The position numbers and the translations under genes were made by a program. A model generated the notes under the pieces. The model had not been told where the DNA came from. It worked only from the letters and a program-made list of their open reading frames with translations, and made no database searches. From Pelagibius sp. (GTDB lineage: Bacteria; Pseudomonadota; Alphaproteobacteria; Kiloniellales; Kiloniellaceae), in the NCBI RefSeq assembly GCF_028289705.1, contig NZ_JANQOI010000090.1, positions 57,995-121,994 on the forward strand: 64,000 bases of DNA, in the 5' to 3' direction. This document shows, one piece after another, positions 30,823 to 54,814 of the stretch; the stretch's first letter is position 1, and each line of letters begins with the position of its first letter.

Positions 30823-32324
30823 GGCGAGAGCCTCCGCGCCGCCCAGACCCGGCGCAGCGCTGCCAAACCCTCGAGCCAGACGACATGACCGGTTGCCGCG
30901 GCCCCCAACAGCCACAAGAGGGCGCAGCCGGCGATGACCGTCAGCAGATCGATAAGGTCCGTGACCCCCGGCCCGCCCAAGTGATAGGCGGCGGCCGGCA
31001 CCGACGCGAAGACCGCGACGAACGCGGAGCGAAGGTAGATGATACCGAAACGCCGGCCCTGGAAGCTCACAAGGTCTTTGATCGCAACGAAGTTGGCGGT
31101 CACGAAGAAACAGGCGACCAGAACCCGTGACATGGCAAAGGCTTCGAGACCGAGCGCGGCGCCATAGGCCGCGGTCGAAAGCGAAAAGACCGCCGTGGCG
31201 CTGCGGAAGGTCAGGAGGCGGGCGATCCTGCCGTGAGGAACCAGGACCTGCTCCGGCTGCGGCAGGATCACGATGATGGCCTGGGCCAGGAGGATCCAGG
31301 CGAAGATCTCTCCTGCGGGCCGCCAGTTCTCACCGAACACTAGGGTGATGAAGGGCACGGCAATCAGCCCCAGCGCCAGGAAGACCGGCCAGACCAGCAC
31401 GGTATTCAGCGCCACCAGCTTTTCCACCCCGGCGGCGATGGAGTGCCCGTCGCGGATCGACTTGGACCAGGCCGGCACCAGGACCCGGGCCACCGGCGCA
31501 AAGATGCCGTTGCGGTAGAGGTTGGGAATCTGCGACGCCCGGATGAACTGCGCCACCAAAGCCGGACTGGTGAAAGCACCGAGGATGAACCGCGTGCCCT
31601 GGGTGTTGGCCGTGCTGATGACTTGCGAGAGCGATAGCAGACCGCCGAACCGGGTGATGTCCCGCCAGTAGACCAGCGACGGCCGGATGAAGGCATAACG
31701 CGGCAGAACCAGCATGGGCAGCAGAGCCGAGAGAAAGGCGGTCAGCAGGATGCCCCAGGCGAGCGCCATGTAGCTGTAACCGGCAAAGGCGAGAGAGACG
31801 CTGAGCAGCGTGCCCGAAACGTTGGACAGCAGGCCGATGTTATGCAGGGCCCCGAACCGCATCTCCCGGGTCAACAGAGCCGTGGCCGGCGCCCCGAAGG
31901 GCGCGATCAGGAAACTCAGCGCCAAGAGAGCCATGACCTCGGCGATGCCGGAGCGGCCGTAGAACTCGGCCAGGTGATGGCGCGCCAGGAACAGCAGCAG
32001 CCCCAAGACCCAGGACATGATCAGCATGACCCCGAAGGCGGAGCAGATCTTCTCCGGATTGAGGTCCGGCTCGCGGATGAGATAGTTACCCACCCCGAAG
32101 GTGCGCAGCGCCGTCAGCACCGCAGCCGCCGACATGGCCAGGGCGAAGATGCCCAGTTCGTCGGGCGTCAGCAGCCGCGCGATGATGACCGCGGCGGCGA
32201 ACTGCAGACCGTACTGCAAGGTCTGCTCGCTGAAGGTCCAGGCCAGTGAGGTGCGTACCGACAAGGCGGCGGTCCTCAGCGAAGGGCCGTGCCGGTGACG
32301 GGGGCGCTCAGGCCGGACATGCAC
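30819..32324 (-). CDS. Polysaccharide/oligosaccharide flippase (Wzx-type, MOP superfamily)
   Basis: This 501-residue membrane protein has about 12-14 predicted helices and begins its core with TFSEQTLQYGLQFAAAVIIARLLTPDELGIFALAM, the typical opening of oligosaccharide flippases. It moves lipid-linked sugar units across the inner membrane. The gene is divergent from a glycosyltransferase gene 105 bp away. A shorter start is possible because the first 20 residues are Arg/His-rich and lack family features. Confidence 0.87.
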   Translation of the reverse strand: MHVRPERPRHRHGPSLRTAALSVRTSLAWTFSEQTLQYGLQFAAAVIIARLLTPDELGIFALAMSAAAVLTALRTFGVGNYLIREPDLNPEKICSAFGVMLIMSWVLGLLLFLARHHLAEFYGRSGIAEVMALLALSFLIAPFGAPATALLTREMRFGALHNIGLLSNVSGTLLSVSLAFAGYSYMALAWGILLTAFLSALLPMLVLPRYAFIRPSLVYWRDITRFGGLLSLSQVISTANTQGTRFILGAFTSPALVAQFIRASQIPNLYRNGIFAPVARVLVPAWSKSIRDGHSIAAGVEKLVALNTVLVWPVFLALGLIAVPFITLVFGENWRPAGEIFAWILLAQAIIVILPQPEQVLVPHGRIARLLTFRSATAVFSLSTAAYGAALGLEAFAMSRVLVACFFVTANFVAIKDLVSFQGRRFGIIYLRSAFVAVFASVPAAAYHLGGPGVTDLIDLLTVIAGCALLWLLGAAATGHVVWLEGLAALRRVWAARRLSP

Positions 32325-37239: not shown

Positions 37240-38238
37240 CTACACCAGCCGGTGGAGATTTTCGCGGAACATCTGGGCGCAGTGGGCCCAGGAGAACTTC
37301 AGGGCGTGCTCGCGACAGTGGCCGCGGTCGATCTTGATGGCCTCGCGGGTGGCGCTGCCCAGGTCCTCGCTCAGAACCCCCACCCCGGCGCCGTCGACGA
37401 TGTCCAGGGGACCCGGCACCGGATAGGCCGCCACCGGCATGCCGCTGGCCAGGGCCTCCAGCACCACCAGGCCGAAGGTGTCGGTGCGGCTGGGAAAGAC
37501 GAAGACGTCGCCGGAGGCATAGTGGGCGGCCAGATCCTCACCCTGCTTGGCGCCAACGAAGTGGACGTCCGGAAAGGCCGCTTCCAACTCCGCGCGCTGC
37601 GGGCCGTCGCCCACCACCACCTTGCTGCCGTCCAGCTTCAGGTCGAGGAAGGCCTGAATGTTCTTCTCCACCGCCACGCGACCGACGTACATATAGATCG
37701 GCCGCGGCAGGTCGAGGGCCGGCGTCGCCTCCGGCCGGAACAGCGTGGTGTCCACGCCGCGTGTCCAGTCCACCAGTCGCTCGAAGCCCCTGGATTCCAG
37801 CTCCTGGCGCATGGACTGGGTCGCCACCATGACGGCGGCCGAGGGTCTGTGGAACCAGCGCATGAAGCGGTAGCCCAGGTCCGGGGAGACCGGCGCCCGG
37901 GCCGCGAGGTACTCGGGAAAACGGGTGTGATAGGAAGTGGTGAAGGGCAGCCTGCGCTTGACGCAGTAGTTCCTGACGGCGACCCCGATGGGCCCCTCGG
38001 TGGCGATGTGAATGGCGTCGGGGGCGAAGGCATCGATGCGCTTCTTGAGCCCGAGGGACGGCAGGATCGCCAGCGGAATCTCAAGATAGGTCGGACAGGG
38101 CAGCGTCTTGAAGAGGTGCGGTGCGAGCACCTCGAAGACATCGCCCTGGGGCTCCAGCTCCTCGCGGACCCGGTTGAGGGTACGCACGACGCCGTTGATT
38201 TGTGGATACCAGGCGTCGCTCGCCAGCAGAATACGCAT
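37240..38238 (-). CDS. GT4 glycosyltransferase, Agt-like glycolipid synthase
   Basis: The 332-residue protein starts MRILLASDAWYPQINGVVRTL and has GLKKRIDAFAPDAIHIATEGPIG, FTTSYHTRFPEYLAAR, and the C-terminal DTFGLVVLEALASGMPVAAYPV with the EX7E-type site. This group includes lipid glycosyltransferases (Agt) that add glucose or glucuronate to diacylglycerol during phosphate starvation in alphaproteobacteria. The gene follows a PlcP-like gene by five bases, the same pair known for phospholipid replacement. Substrate assignment is by homology and context. Confidence 0.8.
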   Translation of the reverse strand: MRILLASDAWYPQINGVVRTLNRVREELEPQGDVFEVLAPHLFKTLPCPTYLEIPLAILPSLGLKKRIDAFAPDAIHIATEGPIGVAVRNYCVKRRLPFTTSYHTRFPEYLAARAPVSPDLGYRFMRWFHRPSAAVMVATQSMRQELESRGFERLVDWTRGVDTTLFRPEATPALDLPRPIYMYVGRVAVEKNIQAFLDLKLDGSKVVVGDGPQRAELEAAFPDVHFVGAKQGEDLAAHYASGDVFVFPSRTDTFGLVVLEALASGMPVAAYPVPGPLDIVDGAGVGVLSEDLGSATREAIKIDRGHCREHALKFSWAHCAQMFRENLHRLV

Positions 38239-38243
38239 AACGC

Positions 38244-39065
38244 TCAGGCGGCGGCGGTTGCCGGCTCCAGCATGGGAAAGGCCCGCAGTTCGGCCCAGTG
38301 CAGGATCTCCAGCCGGCCGTCCATATGCTCGACGAGCGCCGTGCAGCTCTCCACCCAGTCGCCGTCGTTGACGTAGAGAATACCGTCGATCATGCGCATC
38401 TCCGCCAAGTGAATGTGGCCGCAGATCACGCCGTCCACCTTGTGGCGCTTGGCCTCCGCCACCACCGCGTCCTCGAAGTTGCTGATGAACTGGACCGCGT
38501 TCTTCACCCGATGCTTCAGATAGGCCGAGAGCGACCAGTAGCCGAAGCCCAGCTTACGCCGCAGGTAGTTGAAGACGGTGTTGACCTGCAGCATGGTGAC
38601 GTAGGCCCAGTCGCCCAGGAGCGCCAGCCAGCGCGCGTACTTGACGATCCCGTCGAACTCGTCGCCGTGGATCACCAGCATGCGCTTGCCGTCGGCGGTC
38701 TCGTGGATCACCTCCTTGATCACCTCGACGCCGCCGAAGTGCATGCCGAGGTAGTCGCGCAAAACCTCATCGTGGTTGCCCGGCACATAGACCAGGCGCA
38801 TACCCTTGCGCACCTTGCGCAACAGCTTCTGCACCACGTCGTTGTGGGCCTGCGGCCAGTACCAGTTTCTTTTCAGGCGCCAGCCGTCGAAGATGTCGCC
38901 GACGAGATAGAGCGTCTCGCACTCGGTGTTCTTCAAGAAATCGAGCAGGTAATCGGCCTTGCATCCCCGCGTCCCCAAATGAATGTCGGAGATGAAGATG
39001 CTGCGATATCGCGAAGGTCGCGTAGGTGCCAGGCCGTCCATCGGTCGAGTCCGCATATCCCACAA
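38244..39065 (-). CDS. plcP: PlcP-like intracellular phospholipase C (metallophosphoesterase; often annotated as UDP-diacylglucosamine hydrolase)
   Basis: The 273-residue calcineurin-like phosphoesterase has SDIHLGTRGCKADYLLDFL (metal ligands Asp27, His29), LVGDIFDGWRL, VYVPGNHDEVLRDY, LVIHGDEFDG and CGHIHLAEMR. The family is often annotated LpxH-like, but in Sinorhizobium and marine alphaproteobacteria the homologue PlcP cleaves phosphatidylcholine-type phospholipids to diacylglycerol when phosphate is scarce. The Agt-like glycosyltransferase downstream would then turn the diacylglycerol into glycolipid. Phosphate control is expected, but I could not find a convincing Pho box. Confidence 0.8.
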   Translation of the reverse strand: MWDMRTRPMDGLAPTRPSRYRSIFISDIHLGTRGCKADYLLDFLKNTECETLYLVGDIFDGWRLKRNWYWPQAHNDVVQKLLRKVRKGMRLVYVPGNHDEVLRDYLGMHFGGVEVIKEVIHETADGKRMLVIHGDEFDGIVKYARWLALLGDWAYVTMLQVNTVFNYLRRKLGFGYWSLSAYLKHRVKNAVQFISNFEDAVVAEAKRHKVDGVICGHIHLAEMRMIDGILYVNDGDWVESCTALVEHMDGRLEILHWAELRAFPMLEPATAAA

Positions 39066-39604
39066 GGCTTGCCACAGCGGCGGTCTTTGCGCGGCTTATA
39101 GCAACTCGCCCGAAGCGGAAAAAGGACGGCTGTGCAAATGCTGGGGAATATAACCTCAGCTTCACTGCATTGTAACGAAACCTACATGTAGCGATTACTT
39201 TTGGTTAATTATTGCTCCACTAACCCGAGTCGTTCGCTTTTGGCCGAATACTTACGGAAGCCGAATCATCCCGGAGGACGGTTCGAACGCCGGCCGACTC
39301 CGCCAATCAGTTCCGTCGCCCGGCGGAGTCGATCAGGTCAAATCCAAACCCCCGACCCAAGTCCCCCGACCCAGATATCCCGGCCCGGATATCCGACATG
39401 GAACTGTCGCGATACCACAACCTCAACGTCACAGAATGTTCATGATAGCCATGCAAGCAGACGGGGCTCGCCGCCGCTCCGCAGCCACGGACGGTGCCTG
39501 CGGCCTCCCCGGGCGAAGGCCCAGGCCGATCTGCCTGACGGTTCCGGGAAACCCACTTTAGGCCAGAGGGTTAAACCTGTTATATCGCATGTCGTGTTAG
39601 GAGT
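39066..39604. other. Divergent intergenic region, 539 bp, between plcP and the phosphonate genes
   Basis: Holds the promoters for the plcP-agt and phosphonate operons. Visible elements are an AT-rich stretch near 39165-39220 containing the palindrome CTACATGTAG (39182-39191) and a degenerate 14-bp tandem array (39349-39390). The open frame at 39201-39620 has no family likeness and a composition unlike coding DNA here. Confidence 0.5.
39349..39393. repeat. Degenerate 14-bp tandem repeat with embedded inverted repeat
   Basis: Units CCCCCGACCCAAGT, CCCCCGACCCAGAT and ATCCCGGCCCGGAT follow with a 14-bp period. The last unit overlaps a perfect dyad, GATATCC (39374-39380) and GGATATC (39387-39393), with a 6-base centre. 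Confidence 0.65.
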
Positions 39605-40387
39605 ATGCTTGCCGCTGTGAAAACACTATCGACCGCCCGCTATGCGGTGTACTTCGCGCCGGTCTACGAAGCCGCCTTCTGGTCGGCGGCCCAGCGCTGG
39701 CTCGGCCGCGACTGCATCACCGGGGAGCCGCTGTCGCCGGGATCGGTCGACGGCCTCGATCAGGGCGCGGTCGCCAAGGCCACGGAAAGTCCCCGCCACT
39801 ACGGATTTCACGGGACCCTGAAGGCGCCCTTCCGGCTGGCCGAGGGCTGTTCGCTTGACGACTTGCGGGCGGCGACCGCCCAGCTCGCCGCGTCACAGAC
39901 GGCCTTCCTGGCTCCGCCCCTTGAGGTGACGGCCCTGGGGCCTTTCCTGGCAATGACCCTCTCGGCCCCTTCGCCGGCGATGTCCGGCTTGGCCGATGCC
40001 TGCGTGCGCGACCTCGAGGAGCTACGCGCGCCCCTTGGAGAGGCGGAGTTGAAGCGGCGGCTGTCCGCCGGTCTCAGCGAGCGCCAGGAAGCGCATCTCC
40101 GCCGCTGGGGTTACCCCTATGTCTTCGAGGAGTTTCGCTTTCACATGACCCTGACCGGGCGGCTGGACGAGGAGATGCGCCATCGCCTGAAGACTGTTCT
40201 CGCCGAACGATTCAGACCGCATGTACAATCGCCGCTGCCGGTTCGGGAGATCGCCCTCTATGAGCAGCCACTGCCGGAGGAGCCGTTCCTGCTGGTCGAC
40301 CGCTTTGTCCTGTCCGGGCAGGCCTCGGCCCACCCGGACGCCGGACTGCAGGACCCGGAAACCCTGTCTTCCGGCTCCCCGGCGTGA
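39605..40387 (+). CDS. DUF1045 phosphonate-metabolism protein (2H phosphoesterase fold)
   Basis: The 260-residue protein has RYAVYFAP near the start and two His-x-Thr motifs, HYGFHGTLKAPFRL and FRFHMTLTGRL, which define the 2H phosphodiesterase superfamily. This DUF1045 (TIGR03223) branch is found in phn operons. Two starts are possible: ATG at 39605, only one base after AGGAG, or GTG at 39617 with AGGAG 13 bases upstream. It may process a cyclic phosphate intermediate of phosphonate breakdown, but this is not proven for the family. Confidence 0.83.
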   Translation: MLAAVKTLSTARYAVYFAPVYEAAFWSAAQRWLGRDCITGEPLSPGSVDGLDQGAVAKATESPRHYGFHGTLKAPFRLAEGCSLDDLRAATAQLAASQTAFLAPPLEVTALGPFLAMTLSAPSPAMSGLADACVRDLEELRAPLGEAELKRRLSAGLSERQEAHLRRWGYPYVFEEFRFHMTLTGRLDEEMRHRLKTVLAERFRPHVQSPLPVREIALYEQPLPEEPFLLVDRFVLSGQASAHPDAGLQDPETLSSGSPA

Positions 40388-40435
40388 AAACGCTGCGCGC
40401 GCCGGATGCAGAGGAAATACGAGGAGAGAGGACTG

Positions 40436-41020
40436 ATGCCTGAAAACCAAACGGCAAAGCAGGAGGTTGCCGATCCCGTCGAACACCTGCTGACCATCCT
40501 TGAGGAAAAAGGCGGCACGCAGTACGGCGGCGAAGAGGTCGACCAACTCGCCCATGCCCTGCAGTGCGCCACACTGGCGCAGGAGAACGGCGCGCCGGAG
40601 AGCCTGGTCGCCGCAGCCCTGCTCCACGACGTCGGGCATCTGGTCAACCCGAAGGCTGAAGGCGCCGCCGAGGCGGGCATCGATGCCGCGCACGAAAGAA
40701 TCGGCGCCGGCTATCTGGCGCGCTGGTTCGGCCCGGCGGTCACCGCTCCGGTGGCGCAACATGTTGCCGCCAAGCGCTATCTCTGCCAGGCCGAAGAGGG
40801 CTATTTCGAACGCCTCTCGTCGGCCTCGGTGCTCAGTCTCCAACTTCAAGGCGGCCCCTTCTCGGCGGCGGAGGCCGACGACTTCCTGGCCGGACCCTAT
40901 GCCAGGGAGGCGGTGAATCTGCGGCGGTGGGACGAAGCGGCCAAGGACCCGGCGAAGCGTACGGCGAGCCTGCGGGCGTTCCGACCTCTGCTCGAAAGGG
41001 TCCTGGCAGCGCAATCCTGA
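40436..41020 (+). CDS. PhnZ-type HD-domain phosphonate oxygenase
   Basis: The ATG at 40436 follows GGAGAGAGG, giving 194 residues. The sequence matches PhnZ, a mixed-valence di-iron oxygenase that cleaves 2-amino-1-hydroxyethylphosphonate to glycine and phosphate. Tyr30 and Glu33 keep the Y-x2-E spacing of PhnZ. His40, His64, Asp65, His68 and His86 line up with its metal and substrate ligands, in LAHALQ, LLHDVGHL and AAHERIGA, and His109 lies in the matching region. The hydroxylase partner PhnY is not in this window, so the substrate could differ from that of characterised PhnZ. Confidence 0.83.
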   Translation: MPENQTAKQEVADPVEHLLTILEEKGGTQYGGEEVDQLAHALQCATLAQENGAPESLVAAALLHDVGHLVNPKAEGAAEAGIDAAHERIGAGYLARWFGPAVTAPVAQHVAAKRYLCQAEEGYFERLSSASVLSLQLQGGPFSAAEADDFLAGPYAREAVNLRRWDEAAKDPAKRTASLRAFRPLLERVLAAQS

Positions 41021-41038
41021 GACGACGGCCGCCGCGAT

Positions 41039-41611
41039 ATGTCTGGCGACTCCTCCGCCGGGCGCCTCTTCCTCGTCGTTGGCCCCAGCGGCGCGGGCAA
41101 GGACAGCCTGATCAATGCCGCCAAGACCCGGCTCACCGGCCGCCGCGGCTTCGTCTTTCCGCGCCGGATCATCACCCGGCCCAGCGACCCCGAGAGCGAG
41201 GTCCACGACAGCGTCGGCGAGGCGGAGTTCGAGCGGCTCTGCGCCACGGGGGCTTTTTTCCTGCATTGGGGCGCACACAGCCTGCGCTACGCCCTGCCCG
41301 CCTCGATCGCCGATGATCTGGCCGGCGGTGCCACGGTCATCGCCAACGTTTCCCGCGCGGTCATCCCCCAGGCCCATGCGAAGCACCCCGCCACAACGGT
41401 GGTCTTCGTCACCGCGCCACAGGAGGTGCTCGAGGAACGCCTCCTGGCCCGCGGGCGCGAAGACCGCGACACGGTGCGCCGGCGCCTGGCGCGCAGTGCC
41501 GAGCTGCCGGCGGGGCCACCGGTGGTGACTGTCATGAACGACGGCAGCCTGGAGGCCGCCACCCTGCGTTTTCTGGCCGTGCTCACGCCGCCCGCCTCCC
41601 CGGGGCCCTAA
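41039..41611 (+). CDS. phnN: Ribose 1,5-bisphosphate phosphokinase PhnN
   Basis: The 190-residue kinase has a P-loop VVGPSGAGKDSLI and guanylate-kinase-like landmarks typical of PhnN: FPRRIITRPSDPESEVHDSVGEAEF, FLHWGAHSLRYALP and VVFVTAPQEVLEERLLARGRED. PhnN makes PRPP from ribose 1,5-bisphosphate late in the C-P lyase pathway. It sits 18 bp after the PhnZ-like gene. The C-P lyase core genes (phnG-M) are not visible here. Confidence 0.92.
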   Translation: MSGDSSAGRLFLVVGPSGAGKDSLINAAKTRLTGRRGFVFPRRIITRPSDPESEVHDSVGEAEFERLCATGAFFLHWGAHSLRYALPASIADDLAGGATVIANVSRAVIPQAHAKHPATTVVFVTAPQEVLEERLLARGREDRDTVRRRLARSAELPAGPPVVTVMNDGSLEAATLRFLAVLTPPASPGP

Positions 41612-41723
41612 CCGACTGCCATCGCCAGCCTCACCCCGCGGTGAAACCCCGCCGATCCGGGCTGCGTAAGTTAAGACAGGAAGCCAAGGGGGTACCACCG
41701 ATGCCCCGAACCTGAGGAAAACG

Positions 41724-42047
41724 ATGATGTTTGCTGCCCAAGCTACCCTTTTGACCATGGCCAGCGAGTCGCTTTTGCGGCCCCTGGGGAAACGGCCCGC
41801 CCACAAGCCCCAACGCCAGGACCGCTCAAGTCTGGGCCTGGATGACCCCAGTGCCCGGCTACTCGCCGCCTTGGCGGAGATGCTGCCATCAACCCTGGAC
41901 GAGATCGCAGATGCCGCCGAAGTGGAGCGGACCACGGCAGAAGCCTATCTGGCCCGCATGTCGGCGCGCTGCGAAGTGATGTTCAATCCTCTGACGAAGC
42001 GCTACAGCCTTCCGAGAACCGCCGCTGGATCGACATTCGCCGCCTAG
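41724..42047 (+). CDS. Small unknown protein with possible winged-helix-like core
   Basis: The 107-residue frame starts at ATG 41724 (or 41727) with GAGGAAAAC just upstream. Residues 45-95 (LAALAEMLPSTLDEIADAAEVERTTAEAYLARMSARCEV) look like helix-turn-helix segments. No family is recognised. The gene is monocistronic by spacing, 112 bp after phnN. Confidence 0.55.
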   Translation: MMFAAQATLLTMASESLLRPLGKRPAHKPQRQDRSSLGLDDPSARLLAALAEMLPSTLDEIADAAEVERTTAEAYLARMSARCEVMFNPLTKRYSLPRTAAGSTFAA

Positions 42048-48348: not shown

Positions 48349-48399
48349 GTGGAAAGAAGAATGATCGCACTTCATCTCCTTTCTGAAGTTCTGACATAG
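48334..48399 (+). CDS. Possible 21-residue leader peptide or gene remnant
   Basis: The ATG in the first repeat copy opens MSAVIVERRMIALHLLSEVLT and then a TAG stop at 48397-48399. It has the same GGAG-spaced ribosome-binding site as the full RTX gene. It may be a leader peptide or a degenerated paralogue; nothing beyond the repeat resembles the RTX protein. Confidence 0.35.
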   Translation: MSAVIVERRMIALHLLSEVLT

Positions 48400-48676: not shown

Positions 48677-51646
48677 ATGTCGGCCGTCATCAATGAATTT
48701 GTCTTCAATCACTCTGGCAGTGACAATCTCGAGTTCGTTGAAATCTTTGGCGATCCCAACACCGACTATTCCAACCTCTGGCTCATTCAGATCGAGGGCG
48801 ACAGTAATGCCAACGAAGGCACCATCGATGCCGCCATCCAGGTGGGCACGACCGATGCCGACGGCTTCTGGACCACCGGCTTCCTAAGCAACGTTTTCGA
48901 GAACGGCAGCGTCTCCCTGCTGCTCGTCGAGGACTTCACCGGCGCCGTCGGCGACGACCTGGACGTCAACGACGACGGTACCCCGGAGAGCGCTCCCTGG
49001 ACCTCGGTCGTCGATTCCGTCGCCGTGCGCGACAGTGGCGCCAGCGACCTGACCTACGCCGAGACCGAACTGGCCCAGGGCTTCGACGGCAACTCCTTCA
49101 CCGTCGGCGGCGCCTCGCGCATTCCCGACGGCGCCGACACCGACAGCACCGCCGACTGGGTGCGCAACGACTTCTCCACCCCCGCCCCCGGCACCGGATC
49201 GCCGCGAGACGGCGAGGCCGTGAACACCCCGGGCAGCAGTAATATCCAGGTGGAGGCCGGCGCACCCGTCGCCCGCACCATCACGGAAATCCAGGGCGCC
49301 GGGCACAGCTCGCCCTTCTTCCTCCAGGCCGTCACCACCACCGGCATCGTCACCGCCCTTGGCAACGGCGGCTTCTTCATGCAGGACCCCACCGGCGACG
49401 GCGACGACGCCACCTCAGACGCGATCTTCGTGGCCTCCGGCGACAGTGTCGCCGTGGGCGATGCGGTGGAGGTGACCGGCGTCGTCGGCGAGCTGGTCCC
49501 GGCCGGGCGCACCAACGATCTTGCCTTCACCCAGATCGGCGGCGACACCACGGTTACCATCCAGAGCAGCGGCAACGCCCTGCCGGCGGCCACGGTGCTC
49601 GGCACCGGCGGCCGGGTGCCGCCGCAGCAGGTGGTGGAAGACGATGCCTTCGGCTCCTTCGACCCGGCCACCGACGGCCTGGACTTCCTCGAAAGTCTGG
49701 AGGGCATGCGCATCACCGTGCCCGATGCTGTCGCCACGTCGGCCACCAGCCGCTTCGGCGAGACCTGGGTCGTCGCCAATGGCGGCGCCAACGTCGGTCC
49801 CGAGGGCCTCAACCCCCGCGGCGGCATCGACCTGGAAGCCGACGACATCAATCCGGAGCGCATCCAGATCCAGGGCAGCTCCGGCGACGGCGTCGATGTC
49901 GGCGACGGCCTGGGGGATGTCACTGGCATCCTGAGCTACAGCTTCGGCAACTTCGAGGTGCTGCCCGATGCCCCAATCTCGGTGGTGACCGATGCGGGCC
50001 TGGAAGCCGAGACCACCGAGCTGGTGGGCACCGAAAACCAGCTCACGGTGGCCAGCTACAACGTGCTGAACCTTTCCGCCGCCTCCAGCGACGATGCGCA
50101 GCGTGCCATTCTCGGCCAGCAGATCGCCAACAATCTGGGCAGCCCGGACATCATCGCCCTGCAGGAAATCCAGGACAACAACGGCACCACCAACGACGGC
50201 ACCACCGACGCCACCCAGACCCTGCAGGAACTGGTGGACGCCATCGCCGCCGCGGGCGGGCCCACTTACGAGTTCTTCGACATCGCCCCGATTGACGGCA
50301 CCCAGGGCGGCGCGCCGGGCGGCAACATCCGGGTCGCCTACCTCTACAATCCGGAGCGGGTGGAGCTGATCGACGGCTCGGTCGAGGCACTCGACTTCCC
50401 GGCCTTCGTCGGAACGCGCATTCCCCTCCAGGCCCGCTTCGACTTCGAGGGCAACGAGATCACCGTCATCAACAACCACTTCTCCTCCAAGTTCGGCTCG
50501 ACGCCGGTTTACGGCTCGACCCAGCCCTTCATCGATGCCGGCGTCGACGCCCGTGAGGCCGAAGCCCAGGCGATCAATGACCATGTCGACGGCATCAAAG
50601 CGGCCGACCCCAATGCCAAGGTCATTGTCCTCGGCGATCTCAACGACTTCCAGTTCGCCTCCCCGCAGCCGATCCTCAGCGGCGAGGCCGACGGCAATCA
50701 GGTGCTCTTCAACCAGATCGAGGAGCTCACCGACGACGAGGTCTACACCTTCAATTTCGAGGGCAACTCCCAGGTTCTCGACCACTTCCTGGTCACCGAG
50801 AACCTGCAGGAAGACACCGACTTCGACATCGTCCATGTGAACGTGGACTTTGACGACGGTGCACGCTTTGGCAGCGAAACCGGCAGCGACCACGAGCCTA
50901 TACTCGGCCGGCTTTCCCTCGAGGAACGTCCCGACGGCATTGCCGAAGACGGCACCCGACGCGACGACCTGCTGGAGGGCACCGCCGGCCACGATACGCT
51001 GGAAGGCGGCCGGGGCGACGACACGGTGCTGGGCGGCAGTGGCGACGACGATCTCAACGGCGGCCGGGGCGACGATTCCATCGGCGGAGGAACCGGGGCC
51101 GACACCATCGAGGGCGACCGTGGTGAGGACACCATCTCGGGCGCCTCGGGCAATGACTCGATCGACGGTGGCCGCAACGAGGATTCGATCAGCGGCGGCA
51201 GCGGCGAGGACACCATCGATGGCGGCCGGGGCGACGACACCGTCGACGGCGGCGACGACGACGACCTGATCGATGGCGGGCGCAACGACGACCTCTTGAT
51301 GGGCGGCGAAGGCAACGACACCATCGAAGGCGGCCGGGGCGAAGACACGCTGGAGGGCGGCGCAGGCGACGACGTCCTGGAGGGCGATCAGAACGACGAC
51401 GTCTTCATTTTCGCGGCGGGCAGCGGCTGCGACACCGTCCTCGACTTTGAGCCGGGCGACGACCTCATCAGGCTCGACGGCTTCTCGATTGCCGATTTCG
51501 ACGGCGTTTTGGCCGCCGCCGAGAACGACGGCGACGACGTGGTGATCACCCTGGACGAAGAGGCAGGTGACAAGATCCGTTTGGTCGGCGTCAACGAGGA
51601 AGACCTCTCCGCCGACGACTTCGACTTCATGAATTCCGTCGCCTAG
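48677..51646 (+). CDS. Secreted RTX endonuclease/exonuclease/phosphatase-family protein
   Basis: A 989-residue protein with no N-terminal signal. Residues about 1-160 resemble a lamin-tail-like domain (VINEFVFNHSGSDNLEFVEI); residues 195-430 look like an OB-fold region. Residues 450-750 form an EEP nuclease domain (TVASYNVLNL, IIALQEIQDN, VLGDLNDFQFASP, SDHEPILGRL), like ExeM-type extracellular nucleases. Residues 755-905 are acidic RTX nonapeptide repeats (GGxGxDxL type) that bind calcium, and the C-terminus ends with a T1SS-like signal region. The export genes lie just downstream. Confidence 0.9.
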   Translation: MSAVINEFVFNHSGSDNLEFVEIFGDPNTDYSNLWLIQIEGDSNANEGTIDAAIQVGTTDADGFWTTGFLSNVFENGSVSLLLVEDFTGAVGDDLDVNDDGTPESAPWTSVVDSVAVRDSGASDLTYAETELAQGFDGNSFTVGGASRIPDGADTDSTADWVRNDFSTPAPGTGSPRDGEAVNTPGSSNIQVEAGAPVARTITEIQGAGHSSPFFLQAVTTTGIVTALGNGGFFMQDPTGDGDDATSDAIFVASGDSVAVGDAVEVTGVVGELVPAGRTNDLAFTQIGGDTTVTIQSSGNALPAATVLGTGGRVPPQQVVEDDAFGSFDPATDGLDFLESLEGMRITVPDAVATSATSRFGETWVVANGGANVGPEGLNPRGGIDLEADDINPERIQIQGSSGDGVDVGDGLGDVTGILSYSFGNFEVLPDAPISVVTDAGLEAETTELVGTENQLTVASYNVLNLSAASSDDAQRAILGQQIANNLGSPDIIALQEIQDNNGTTNDGTTDATQTLQELVDAIAAAGGPTYEFFDIAPIDGTQGGAPGGNIRVAYLYNPERVELIDGSVEALDFPAFVGTRIPLQARFDFEGNEITVINNHFSSKFGSTPVYGSTQPFIDAGVDAREAEAQAINDHVDGIKAADPNAKVIVLGDLNDFQFASPQPILSGEADGNQVLFNQIEELTDDEVYTFNFEGNSQVLDHFLVTENLQEDTDFDIVHVNVDFDDGARFGSETGSDHEPILGRLSLEERPDGIAEDGTRRDDLLEGTAGHDTLEGGRGDDTVLGGSGDDDLNGGRGDDSIGGGTGADTIEGDRGEDTISGASGNDSIDGGRNEDSISGGSGEDTIDGGRGDDTVDGGDDDDLIDGGRNDDLLMGGEGNDTIEGGRGEDTLEGGAGDDVLEGDQNDDVFIFAAGSGCDTVLDFEPGDDLIRLDGFSIADFDGVLAAAENDGDDVVITLDEEAGDKIRLVGVNEEDLSADDFDFMNSVA
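50990..51395 (+). repeat. RTX repeat-coding array
   Basis: Tandem 27-bp units encode GGRGDDTVL-, GGSGEDTID- and GGRNDDLL-like nonapeptides. The DNA is made of repeated GGCGGC, GGCGAC and GACACC patterns and is a likely site of unit-number change. Confidence 0.85.
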
Positions 51647-51671
51647 CGAATTCGTAGGAACAGAGGGCGGC

Positions 51672-51706
51672 CGGGCGGTGGCACCCAAGGGAGTATCCAC
51701 CGCCCG
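51672..51706 (+). repeat. Hairpin between the RTX gene and the secretion ATPase gene
   Basis: Perfect 10-bp arms CGGGCGGTGG (51672-51681) and CCACCGCCCG (51697-51706) with a 15-base loop, 25 bp after the RTX stop. No T-run follows, so partial attenuation is more likely than full termination. Confidence 0.7.
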
Positions 51707-51740
51707 CCCCGCAGCGATTGGACAGATAGATCGAACGAAA

Positions 51741-53486
51741 ATGGGTAAATCATTGAGCAATAAGAATAACAACCCGCTCGGCCAAGCGCTCAAACAGGTG
51801 CGCGCCACCTTCCTTTCCGTGGGCTTCTTCAGCTTTTTCATCAACCTGCTGATGCTCACCGGCCCGCTTTACATGCTGCAGATCTACGACCGGGTGCTGA
51901 GCTCCGGGAGCCAGCACACCCTGATCATGCTCACCGTCGTCGCGGTGGGCATGATCCTCACCAGCGCTCTCCTGGAGCTGGTGCGCTCGCGGGTGCTGGT
52001 GCGCATCGGATCGCGGCTCGATTCCTCCCTCAGCAACCAGCTCTTCGCCGGGCTGCTGCGCCAGCGGCTGCGCCAGAGCGAGAGCGGCCAGGCCCAGCCG
52101 CTGCGCGACCTGGAGACCCTGCGCAGCTTCCTCACCGGCAACGGCCTGATCTCCTTCTTCGATGCGCCCTGGACCCCCCTCTTTCTGGCCATCGTCTTTC
52201 TGTTTCATCCCCTGCTCGGACTCGTTGCCCTCTCCGGCGCGGTGATCCTCTTTGCCCTGGCCGTCATCAGCGAGTTCGCGACACGCCGGCCTCTGCAGGA
52301 TGCCTCTCAGGACAGCGCCGCCGCCCACGGCTTCACCGAGAACACGCTGCGCAATGCCGAGGTCATCGAGGCCATGGGCATGCTGCCGGCCCTGCAGGCG
52401 CGCTGGCGCAGCCGCCATCAGGGCGCGCTTGCCGCCCAGGCCAAAGCAAGCGACCGCGGCGGCCTCCTGACCGCCTCGGCCAAGTTCATCCGCCCGGTGC
52501 TCCAGGTGGCGATCCTGGGGACCGGCGCCTATCTGGCCCTGCAGCAGATCATCACTCCCGGGGTGATGATCGCCGCCTCCATCATCATGGGCCGCGCCTT
52601 GGCCCCGGTGGAGGGCGCCATCGGCCATTGGCGCAGCTTCGTCCTCGCCCGTGGCGCCCGCGTCCGCCTGAAGGACTTCCTGGCCAAGCAGCCCCTGCCC
52701 GGCAGCGCCCTGCCGCTGCCCCGGCCGAAGGGCGCCGTCTCCGTGGAACGTCTGGTGGCCGCACCGCCCGGTCTCGACAAGCCGGTGCTGAAGGGCATCT
52801 CCTTCGCCCTCGATGCCGGCGAGAGCCTGGGGATCATCGGACCAAGCGCGGCAGGCAAGTCCACCCTCGCCCGCCTCTTGATCGGGATCTGGGCACCGGC
52901 GGCCGGCCACGTGCGGCTCGACGGCGCCGACATCGCGGAGTGGAACCATGAGCAGCTCGGCCCCTTCCTCGGCTACCTGCCGCAGGACGTCGAGCTCTTC
53001 GACGGAACCATCGCCGACAACATCGCCCGCTTCGGCAACGCCAATCCGGAGAAGGTCGTCCGCGCCGCCGAACGGGCCAACGTCCATGAGATGATCCTGC
53101 GTCTGCCGCACGGCTATGACACGGTGATCGGCCAGGGCGGTGCCGCCCTCTCCGGCGGGCAGCGCCAGCGCGTCGGCCTCGCCCGCGCGCTCTATGACGA
53201 CCCCGCTTTCATCGTTCTGGACGAACCCAACTCCAACCTCGATGGCGAGGGCGAGGACGCCCTGCGCCGCGCCGTCGCGGACCTCAAGGCCAGCGGCACC
53301 ACCGTGGTGGTGATCGCCCACCGACCCTCGGTGCTCGCCGGCATGGACAAGCTGCTGGTGCTACGCAACGGCCTCATCGAACAGTTCGGCCCACGAGAGG
53401 AGGTTATGCCCAAGGTCACCAAAGCGGTGCCAGTGGCCGCGACCGACGGCCGACGGCCCGTCGAACCAAAGGCGGTGCAATCATGA
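51741..53486 (+). CDS. Type I secretion ABC transporter, permease/ATPase (PrtD/HlyB family)
   Basis: The ATG at 51741 gives 581 residues. An in-frame GTG at 51678 lies inside the hairpin and is less likely. The N-terminal half has about six membrane helices starting FLSVGFFSFFINLLMLTGPLYMLQIYDRVL, a classic T1SS opening. The C-terminal ATPase has [46 protein letters not shown] and VIAHRPSVL. It exports the upstream RTX protein. Confidence 0.92.
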   Translation: MGKSLSNKNNNPLGQALKQVRATFLSVGFFSFFINLLMLTGPLYMLQIYDRVLSSGSQHTLIMLTVVAVGMILTSALLELVRSRVLVRIGSRLDSSLSNQLFAGLLRQRLRQSESGQAQPLRDLETLRSFLTGNGLISFFDAPWTPLFLAIVFLFHPLLGLVALSGAVILFALAVISEFATRRPLQDASQDSAAAHGFTENTLRNAEVIEAMGMLPALQARWRSRHQGALAAQAKASDRGGLLTASAKFIRPVLQVAILGTGAYLALQQIITPGVMIAASIIMGRALAPVEGAIGHWRSFVLARGARVRLKDFLAKQPLPGSALPLPRPKGAVSVERLVAAPPGLDKPVLKGISFALDAGESLGIIGPSAAGKSTLARLLIGIWAPAAGHVRLDGADIAEWNHEQLGPFLGYLPQDVELFDGTIADNIARFGNANPEKVVRAAERANVHEMILRLPHGYDTVIGQGGAALSGGQRQRVGLARALYDDPAFIVLDEPNSNLDGEGEDALRRAVADLKASGTTVVVIAHRPSVLAGMDKLLVLRNGLIEQFGPREEVMPKVTKAVPVAATDGRRPVEPKAVQS

Positions 53487-54814
53487 GCAAAGCCATGCGC
53501 AAGAAAGGCGAGAGCGCCAATGCGGCGCCCACCAACTCCCGCCCCATCATCTTCGCCGGGCTGACGGTTGTCGCCCTCACCTTCGCCGGTTTCTTCGGCT
53601 GGGCTGCCTATGCCGAGCTCTCCTCGGCGGTCATTGCCTCCGGCACCGTCACCGTGGACAGCAACCGCAAGGCCATCCAGCACATCGAGGGCGGCATCGT
53701 GAAGGAGATCCTGGTGCGCAACGGCGATGCCGTGCGCCGGGACCAGCTTCTGGTGCGCCTCGACGAAACCCGGGCGCAGGCCTCCCTCGCCATCCTCCAG
53801 GGGAGGCTCGACGAGGCGCTGGCCAACGAGGCACGGCTGATCGCCGAACGCGGCGATGCGGAGTCCATTGCCTTTCCTGAAGGGCTCCTCGCTCGGGTCA
53901 GCGACCCCCAGGTCGGTGACAGCCTCAAGGGCCAACAGAGTCTGTTCGACGCCCGCCGCGAAACCCTGAAGGGCGAGATCGAGATCTATCGCGAGCGCAT
54001 CGCCCAGGTGGGCGAGCAGATCAGCGGACTGCGTGCCCAACAGAAATCCAAGGCCCGCCAGATCGAGTTGATCGGCGAGGAACTGGAGGGTCTGCGCAAG
54101 CTGCTGGCCAAGGGCTTTGCCGAGAAGACCAAGGTTCTGGCCCTGGAGCGCGAAGCGGCGCGCCTGGGCGGGGAGCGCGGCGAACATATCGCGGAGATCG
54201 CCGCCGCCAAGACCTCCATCAGTCAGGCTGAATTGGAAATACTCCAACTTCGCAAGGGCTTCCGGGAAAGTGTTGAGATCGAACTGCGGCAGGTCCGCGC
54301 AGAGATCTTCGACCTCCGCGAACGGGTCACCACCTCACGCTTCGTGCTGGACCATCTGGAGGTCCGCGCACCGGAGGACGGCGTCGTCGTCGGCCTCGAG
54401 GTCTATGCCCCCGGCCAGGTGGTGCAGCCCGGCGCCACCATCCTGGAGTTGGTGCCGGTGAACGACGAGTTGATCGTCGAGGCCCGCGTCCTGCCTTTCG
54501 ACATCGACTCCCTCGCTCTTGGCCTCGAAGCCGATGTGATCTTCACGGCCTTTCAGCAGCGCACCACGCCGAAGCTCAAGGGCCAGGTGGCCTACTTCTC
54601 GGCCGATCGTTTCGAGGATCAGCGCAGCGGCGAGGCTTACTACCTCGCCCGCATCTCAATTCCCGAGGCGGAAGTGGCCCGCCTGGGGGAAGAGCAGGTG
54701 CTGCGCCCCGGCATGCCCGCCGACGTGATGATCAAGACCGGGGAGCGCACGGCGCTGGACTACCTGATCCAGCCGATCAAGGACAGCGTGACCCGCGCCT
54801 GGCGGGAGAACTGA
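53483..54814 (+). CDS. Type I secretion periplasmic adaptor (HlyD/PrtE family)
   Basis: The start overlaps the ATPase stop (ATGA). The 443-residue protein has one transmembrane helix (PIIFAGLTVVALTFAGFFGWAAYA), a lipoyl-like half (VIASGTVTVDSNRKAIQHIEGGIVKEILVRNGDAV), a long coiled-coil hairpin (about residues 100-260) and the second half with DGVVVGLEVYAPGQVVQPG. It bridges the ATPase to an outer-membrane TolC, which is not encoded in this window. Confidence 0.93.
   Translation: MSKAMRKKGESANAAPTNSRPIIFAGLTVVALTFAGFFGWAAYAELSSAVIASGTVTVDSNRKAIQHIEGGIVKEILVRNGDAVRRDQLLVRLDETRAQASLAILQGRLDEALANEARLIAERGDAESIAFPEGLLARVSDPQVGDSLKGQQSLFDARRETLKGEIEIYRERIAQVGEQISGLRAQQKSKARQIELIGEELEGLRKLLAKGFAEKTKVLALEREAARLGGERGEHIAEIAAAKTSISQAELEILQLRKGFRESVEIELRQVRAEIFDLRERVTTSRFVLDHLEVRAPEDGVVVGLEVYAPGQVVQPGATILELVPVNDELIVEARVLPFDIDSLALGLEADVIFTAFQQRTTPKLKGQVAYFSADRFEDQRSGEAYYLARISIPEAEVARLGEEQVLRPGMPADVMIKTGERTALDYLIQPIKDSVTRAWREN

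What the first reader, a model, noticed from the sequence alone, without database searches (positions are those of the whole stretch)
37240..41611. Phosphorus-economy island: PlcP/Agt lipid remodelling next to phosphonate genes
A PlcP-like phospholipase C and an Agt-like glycolipid synthase lie divergent to DUF1045, PhnZ-type oxygenase and PhnN genes, across one shared 539-bp intergenic region. One set saves phosphorus by replacing phospholipids with glycolipids, the other gains it from phosphonates. I have not seen these two responses described as a single divergent locus. A shared phosphate-responsive control is a testable inference.
Basis: partly seen in the sequence, partly recalled or inferred. 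Interest (0 to 1): 0.7.

Follow-up and report, generated by a model that had tools for sequence, protein, structure and literature searches.

The report
Lipid-swap genes beside phosphonate-salvage genes
In all eight genomes of one bacterial genus that we could examine, two genes predicted to replace membrane phospholipids with sugar lipids sit back to back with three genes that likely help finish the breakdown of phosphonates, and regulator-site-like sequences between them suggest that phosphate starvation would switch both sides on together.

Summary
An agt-like glycosyltransferase and a PlcP-type phospholipase face DUF1045, an HD oxygenase and phnN across a 539-bp spacer. The block is kept in 8 of 8 held genomes of the genus (taken to be Pelagibius), while in the 14 other order genomes with both plcP and DUF1045 they were never seen together (12 of these are drafts). 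The metallophosphoesterase is PlcP-like (57% to an S. meliloti homologue, 23% to E. coli LpxH). The "phosphonate" side is probably not a pathway of its own: phnJ is on another contig in 8 of 8, and each genus genome has one DUF1045 and one full-scoring PhnN, both here. In two sister genera these genes lie at the phnM end of the C-P lyase cluster, so here they have likely come apart from it. DUF1045 is predicted to fold as a 2H cyclic phosphodiesterase with both HxT motifs, suiting it to act before PhnN. A Pho-box matrix built only from pstS promoters of the genus has its best site of each region inside the spacer in 7 of 7 relatives; in the window one site is clear and the other degenerate. 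Phosphate control is predicted, untested. The HD oxygenase's substrate is unknown. My searches found no paper describing this linkage.

The parts
37240..38238 (-). agt-like GT4 glycosyltransferase, predicted diacylglycerol glycosyltransferase
   Evidence: Pfam GT4 domains; 75-89% to the gene after plcP in 7 of 7 other genus genomes; 53% to the glycosyltransferase directly after PlcP in a Sphingomonas plasmid
38244..39065 (-). PlcP-type phospholipase C; likely true start ATG at 39041
   Evidence: 57% identity over 252 aa to an S. meliloti PlcP-family protein; 23% to E. coli LpxH; 87-93% in 7 of 7 other genus genomes
39147..39176 (-). promoter-like site GTTACA-18-TATATT toward plcP; its first hexamer lies inside box 1
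   Evidence: only sigma-70-like hit in 38900-42000, mean 0.3 in shuffles; TATAA on the + strand is kept in the 6 aligned genomes, not in G018/G021
39159..39187 (+). Pho-box-like block 1 (plcP side), three half-sites with 11-bp period; degenerate in the window, higher-scoring in 6 of 7 relatives
   Evidence: block chosen by eye on the alignment and scored in 8 genomes
39393..39410 (+). Pho-box-like block 2 (DUF1045 side), CCGACATGGAACTGTCGC
   Evidence: 13.7 bits, third-best site of both strands of the 64-kb window with a pstS-derived matrix; matching block in 8 genomes
39605..40387 (+). DUF1045 protein, predicted 2H cyclic phosphodiesterase (likely PhnP substitute)
   Evidence: TIGR03223; HxT motifs H69-G-T71 and H180-M-T182; AlphaFold2 pLDDT 91.4; matches LigT and Appr>p phosphodiesterase structures
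40406..41020 (+). HD-domain protein, TIGR03276 (PhnHD), predicted diiron oxygenase, substrate unknown
   Evidence: TIGR03276 220 bits; aligns to TmpB and PhnZ in the PDB with Y40, E43, H50, H74-D75, H96, H119 and D176 kept; that these are metal or substrate residues is recalled
41039..41611 (+). PhnN, ribose 1,5-bisphosphokinase by family
   Evidence: TIGR02322 194.7 bits, cut-off 156; only over-cut-off copy found in the genome

Best explanation
This is a genus-conserved divergent pair of gene sets in which plcP-agt, predicted to swap membrane phospholipids for glycolipids, faces DUF1045-HD oxygenase-phnN, which likely supplies late steps of the C-P lyase pathway whose core genes lie elsewhere in the same genome, and both sets are likely switched on by PhoB through two Pho-box-like sites in the spacer between them. 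Likely working: when phosphate is low, PhoB would bind box 1 (over the plcP promoter-like site) and box 2 (ahead of DUF1045). PlcP would then split phospholipids into diacylglycerol and phosphoalcohols, and Agt would glycosylate the diacylglycerol. In parallel the C-P lyase encoded elsewhere would yield 5-phosphoribosyl 1,2-cyclic phosphate. DUF1045 would open it to ribose 1,5-bisphosphate and PhnN would phosphorylate that to PRPP. The HD protein would cleave an unidentified alpha-hydroxyphosphonate by oxidation. Shown here: gene order, families, conservation, the sites as sequence. Predicted by model: the DUF1045 fold. Inferred: every enzymatic step and the PhoB control.
Against: No expression data. 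Box 1 scores only 7.4 bits in the window and 3.0-14.9 in relatives for its first two half-sites. Both boxes read toward DUF1045, so box 1 would act on plcP in reverse orientation, and the TATAA beside it is not kept in G018/G021. With the three-half-site matrix the top site is in the spacer in only 4 of 7 relatives. Two other window sites outscore box 2 (31763, 17837). In L173 the top C-P lyase site is inside phnK. Flanking genes are also syntenic: HTH and DUF1194 in 7 of 7 relatives, SGL in 6 of 7, so adjacency could be plain inheritance. HD and DUF1045 trees do not place the genus next to sister genus g2, so where the trio came from is open. Whether the genome has a PhnP was not tested.
Confidence: 0.66

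Rival explanations
1. The right-hand trio is a separate oxidative phosphonate pathway of PhnY/PhnZ type, and DUF1045 and PhnN are incidental.
For: The HD protein keeps the residues shared by PhnZ and TmpB; 12 PhyH-family matches exist elsewhere in the genome.
Against: No PhyH gene in the trio. TmpB and PhnZ1 models score 173.8 and 141.5 against cut-offs of 300. DUF1045 and PhnN are, by family, phosphonate-operon and C-P lyase pathway proteins. In the two g2 genomes fetched the HD gene follows phnM in the C-P lyase cluster.
Confidence: 0.15
2. Plain neighbours: a rearrangement in the genus ancestor set two phosphate-regulated sets side by side and ordinary inheritance kept them, without functional coupling beyond each having its own Pho box.
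For: Flanking genes are also conserved (HTH and DUF1194 in 7 of 7, SGL in 6 of 7, TPR in 5 of 7 relatives); the two boxes are separate.
Against: The five genes stay together in G017 and G022, where 3.5-4.8 kb of other genes lie between PhnN and the HTH gene. In G018 and G021 the one gene inside the spacer is a PstS-like binding protein (PF12849 78.4 bits in L122; TIGR02136 46.6 and 39.4 bits, below its cut-off).
Confidence: 0.3
3. The metallophosphoesterase is LpxH (lipid A synthesis), not PlcP.
For: LpxH chains are the only solved structures matched by sequence (best E 7e-07), and public records label such proteins UDP-2,3-diacylglucosamine diphosphatase.
Against: 40 bits and 23% to E. coli LpxH against 313 bits and 57% to the S. 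meliloti homologue; far below LpxH model cut-offs; next to agt.
Confidence: 0.03

Closest known systems
plcP-agt operon, type 2 plcP neighbourhood (PMC4796936; OB3b PMC9239053; passages of both)
   Same: PlcP followed by an Agt-like glycosyltransferase, with Pho-box-like sites near the promoter
   Different: Here it is divergent to DUF1045-HD-phnN; the word phosphonate does not occur in the main text of either paper
C-P lyase cluster with DUF1045, proposed to replace PhnP (S. meliloti/Aminobacter, PMC8235418; 2H protein in review PMC10574752; passages of both)
   Same: DUF1045 and PhnN with a phn core and PhnF
   Different: In this genus DUF1045, HD and PhnN lie apart from the core, beside plcP-agt; the own genome carries two tandem phnM-like genes
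TIGR03276 PhnHD beside phosphonatase operons in Achromobacter (PMC11203657, section 2.7 read)
   Same: Same family; predicted diiron oxygenase; substrate not shown
   Different: Here it sits with C-P lyase accessory genes, not with phosphonatase genes
TmpB and PhnZ (PDB 6npa, 4mlm)
   Same: HD oxygenase family; shared residues kept
   Different: No adjacent PhnY/TmpA-type hydroxylase; below the curated cut-offs of the characterised subfamilies

Membership tests
PlcP phospholipases | Closer to a PlcP-family protein than to LpxH | tested here: met
   57% against 23%; that the S. meliloti protein is the characterised SMc00171 is recalled
PlcP phospholipases | Phospholipase C activity on PC/PE | not testable with these tools
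   needs assay
Agt glycosyltransferases | GT4 protein directly after plcP | tested here: met
Agt glycosyltransferases | Makes MGDG/GADG from diacylglycerol | not testable with these tools
   needs lipidomics
DUF1045 / 2H phosphoesterases | Two HxT/S motifs in a 2H fold | tested here: met
   H69, T71 and H180 invariant and T182 nearly so (one S) in 17 sequences; 2H fold matches of the model
PhnP-equivalent of C-P lyase | Hydrolyses 5-phosphoribosyl 1,2-cyclic phosphate | not testable with these tools
   needs assay
PhnP-equivalent of C-P lyase | C-P lyase core present in the same genome | tested here: met
   phnJ in 8 of 8 genus genomes
PhnP-equivalent of C-P lyase | No PhnP elsewhere in the genome | not tested
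PhnN | Over the curated score of TIGR02322 | tested here: met
   194.7 against 156
TIGR03276 Phn-HD | Over the curated score | tested here: met
   220 against 214.6
TmpB / PhnZ1 subfamilies | Over curated cut-off of 300 bits | tested here: not met
   173.8 and 141.5
PhnY/PhnZ pathway | Adjacent PhyH-type hydroxylase | tested here: not met
   none in the trio; PhyH-family matches lie on other contigs
Pho regulon | Pho box of 7-bp direct repeats with 11-bp period upstream | tested here: met
   box 2 clear, box 1 weak in the window
Pho regulon | PhoB-dependent induction | not testable with these tools
   needs expression data

The most novel reading that the evidence does not exclude
The island is one salvage line for membrane phosphorus: PlcP frees head groups including phosphonolipid ones (hydroxyaminoethylphosphonate type), the HD oxygenase cleaves those without needing a PhnY hydroxylase, and DUF1045-PhnN return C-P lyase phosphorus to PRPP, so lipid remodelling and phosphonate breakdown are metabolically joined, not only co-regulated.
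Probability: 0.06. Interest if true: 0.8.

Novelty: new variant of a known kind. Interest (0 to 1): 0.42.

Why it matters
It ties the saving response (lipid swap) and the scavenging response (phosphonate use) to one predicted phosphate-controlled locus. [quoted passage not shown]

Tried and rejected
LpxH identity of the metallophosphoesterase: rejected. A stand-alone PhnY/PhnZ pathway: no PhyH partner in the locus. The own genome does hold a PhyH-HD pair on contig C52, but its HD scores only 42.7 bits against TIGR03276 (cut-off 214.6) and its PhyH is nearest to a chlorinating-enzyme model, below that model's cut-off, so it was not taken as the missing partner.

A single shared Pho box: replaced by two blocks, because the footprint shows two blocks 97-234 bp apart in six genomes and about 1.5 kb apart in G018/G021, where a gene lies between them. 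The blocks were picked by eye before scoring.

Three-half-site matrix (M29): noisier than the two-half-site one. Its top site is in the spacer in 4 of 7 relatives; in the window its best hit is at 48382 and box 1 scores only 3.4 on the + strand. DUF1045 by sequence against the PDB: no hit at E up to 1. A direct move of the trio from a g2-type operon: not supported by the HD and DUF1045 trees, so origin is left open. Plasmid survey: 30 records with PlcP and 145 with DUF1045; shared records were not compared one by one, and 85 of the 145 were not listed.

The order survey covers 61 held genomes, mostly drafts. Of 19 PstS-like rows I scanned nine (L132-L140); two (L139, L140) gave no clear box and were left out of the matrix; the other ten were not scanned. 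Trees are quick ones and used subsets: 53 of 108 DUF1045 rows and 41 of 63 PhnJ rows. PhnI of the own genome is named by position and similarity only; no NCBIfam model hit it.
Full report
OBSERVATION. The left side is a GT4 glycosyltransferase and a metallophosphoesterase. The right side reaches the curated scores of TIGR03223 (DUF1045), TIGR03276 (Phn-HD) and TIGR02322 (PhnN). The three right-hand genes have 18-bp gaps, as in an operon. PlcP probably starts at ATG 39041 rather than TTG 39065: the genus proteins agree from MDG on, and TGCGGA just before it on the coding strand is invariant in the 6 aligned genomes.

WHAT THE LEFT SIDE IS. The metallophosphoesterase is 57% identical over 252 residues to an S. 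meliloti protein that lies near an acyl-homoserine-lactone synthase and a LuxR gene. That this is the characterised PlcP, SMc00171, is recalled, not shown. It is 23% identical to E. coli LpxH and scores 45.7 bits against the LpxH model's cut-off of 190.35. The glycosyltransferase directly follows it, as in the type 2 plcP-agt neighbourhood (PMC4796936, passages), and is 53% identical to the one after PlcP in a Sphingomonas plasmid.

THE C-P LYASE IS ELSEWHERE. Contig C169 of the own genome carries phnG, H, K and F over their model cut-offs, phnJ (PF06007), phnL cut by the contig end (234 bits, cut-off 256.3), phnI by position, phnE over cut-off, and phnC and phnD below theirs. Contig C95 has two tandem phnM over cut-off; the two contigs appear to meet within phnL. 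DUF1045 and over-cut-off PhnN occur once per genus genome, and over-cut-off Phn-HD once in the own genome, all at the plcP locus. Around phnJ, 7 of 7 relatives show phnF, H, I, K, L and M; 4 of 7 also show phnD, C and E; none shows HD, DUF1045 or PhnN in the 13 kb fetched.

CONSERVATION. Within the family (23 held genomes) all 8 of the genus have plcP divergent to DUF1045, with agt, HD and PhnN in the same order in all 7 relatives. G017 and G022 hold the DUF1045 sequences named Pelagibius marinus and Pelagibius sp. CAU 1746 in public records, so I take the genus to be Pelagibius. phnJ is in 8 of 8, each time on another contig. In sister genera g2 and g5, 9 of 9 genomes with a full DUF1045 match have it 3.4 kb from phnJ. 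In the two g2 genomes fetched, HD and DUF1045 follow phnM on its strand and PhnN lies next on the other strand. In the two g5 genomes fetched, PhnN follows phnM, DUF1045 lies next on the other strand, and no HD is matched. Across the order (61 held genomes) 28 have PlcP, 33 have DUF1045 and 22 have both. The two lie together in the 8 of this genus and in none of the other 14. Of those 14, G026 and G059 are listed with one contig, so the absence is firm there; in drafts with matches near contig ends it is not. Among 80 named DUF1045 loci, by bit-score thresholds set, 49 carry C-P lyase core genes within the fetched DNA, 56 carry PhnN, 4 carry HD and 1 carries plcP-agt. That one, L008, is the same assembly as G019. 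The genus state is therefore probably derived. HD, DUF1045 and PhnJ of the genus each form one group (SH-aLRT 99, 90 and 100%), but not beside g2, so the origin of the trio is open.

CONTROL REGION. I took Pho boxes from the genus's own pstS-type promoters (7 of 9 examined) and built a matrix without any island sequence. With two half-sites its best site in each 17-18-kb region falls inside the plcP-DUF1045 spacer in 7 of 7 relatives; with three half-sites in 4 of 7. In the window, box 2 (39393-39410) is third of all sites in 64 kb; the two higher ones are at 31763 and 17837. Against 500 dinucleotide shuffles per spacer, p for the best site is 0.002-0.010 in 8 of 8; the genomes are related, so these are not independent. 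Two blocks can be lined up in all 8 genomes. Block 1 is weak in the window and covers the first hexamer of the only promoter-like site, which points at plcP. Both blocks read toward DUF1045, so a role of block 1 for plcP is inferred. The pattern agrees with CTGTCATNNNNCTGTCAT as given in PMC8528852 (passages). C-P lyase loci of the genus have their top site between phnF and phnG/H or phnF and phnD in 6 of 7 relatives; in L173 it is inside phnK. In G018 and G021 a PstS-like gene sits in the spacer. Transcription was not tested.

NOVELTY. No linkage of plcP with DUF1045, PhnN or C-P lyase genes turned up in what I looked at: passages of PMC4796936 and PMC9239053 (no occurrence of "phosphonate" in either main text), passages of PMC6852614 and PMC5082522, and the listings. 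Only open-access papers were searched. The parts are known; their arrangement, the separation from the C-P lyase core and the paired boxes are new to me.

VERDICT. A real, genus-wide, probably PhoB-controlled pairing of lipid remodelling with C-P lyase accessory genes that stand apart from their core. It is a new variant of known systems, of moderate interest.

Noticed in passing
L198:636-2250 (G000:C52): A PhyH-type protein overlapping a divergent HD protein (42.7 bits to TIGR03276) in the own genome: a possible further hydroxylase-oxygenase pair of unknown substrate.
   Followed up: partly
window 48677-54814: A 989-aa protein with endonuclease/exonuclease/phosphatase domain and RTX repeats, followed by ABC and HlyD secretion genes; possibly a secreted nuclease that could also free phosphate.
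   Followed up: no
L130:3988-6626; L174, L176, L178: Two tandem phnM in the own C-P lyase region; in L174, L176 and L178 a second phnM-like match of 46-49% to the own first phnM also follows the first.
   Followed up: no
L185, L187 (G050, G048): In another family of the order DUF1045 and HD also stand together without C-P lyase core matches in the fetched DNA, maybe a second separation.
   Followed up: no
L122:6704-7819; G018:C1:380603-381457: A PstS-like binding-protein gene lies inside the plcP-DUF1045 spacer in G021 and G018.
   Followed up: partly
G048, G049, G050 PlcP matches: Three of three genomes of one genus show one TGA inside the PlcP match.
   Followed up: no
window 39605-40387 and relatives: DUF1045 is only 54-59% identical between the window and its 7 genus relatives while PlcP is 87-93%: the right side seems to evolve much faster.
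   Followed up: no
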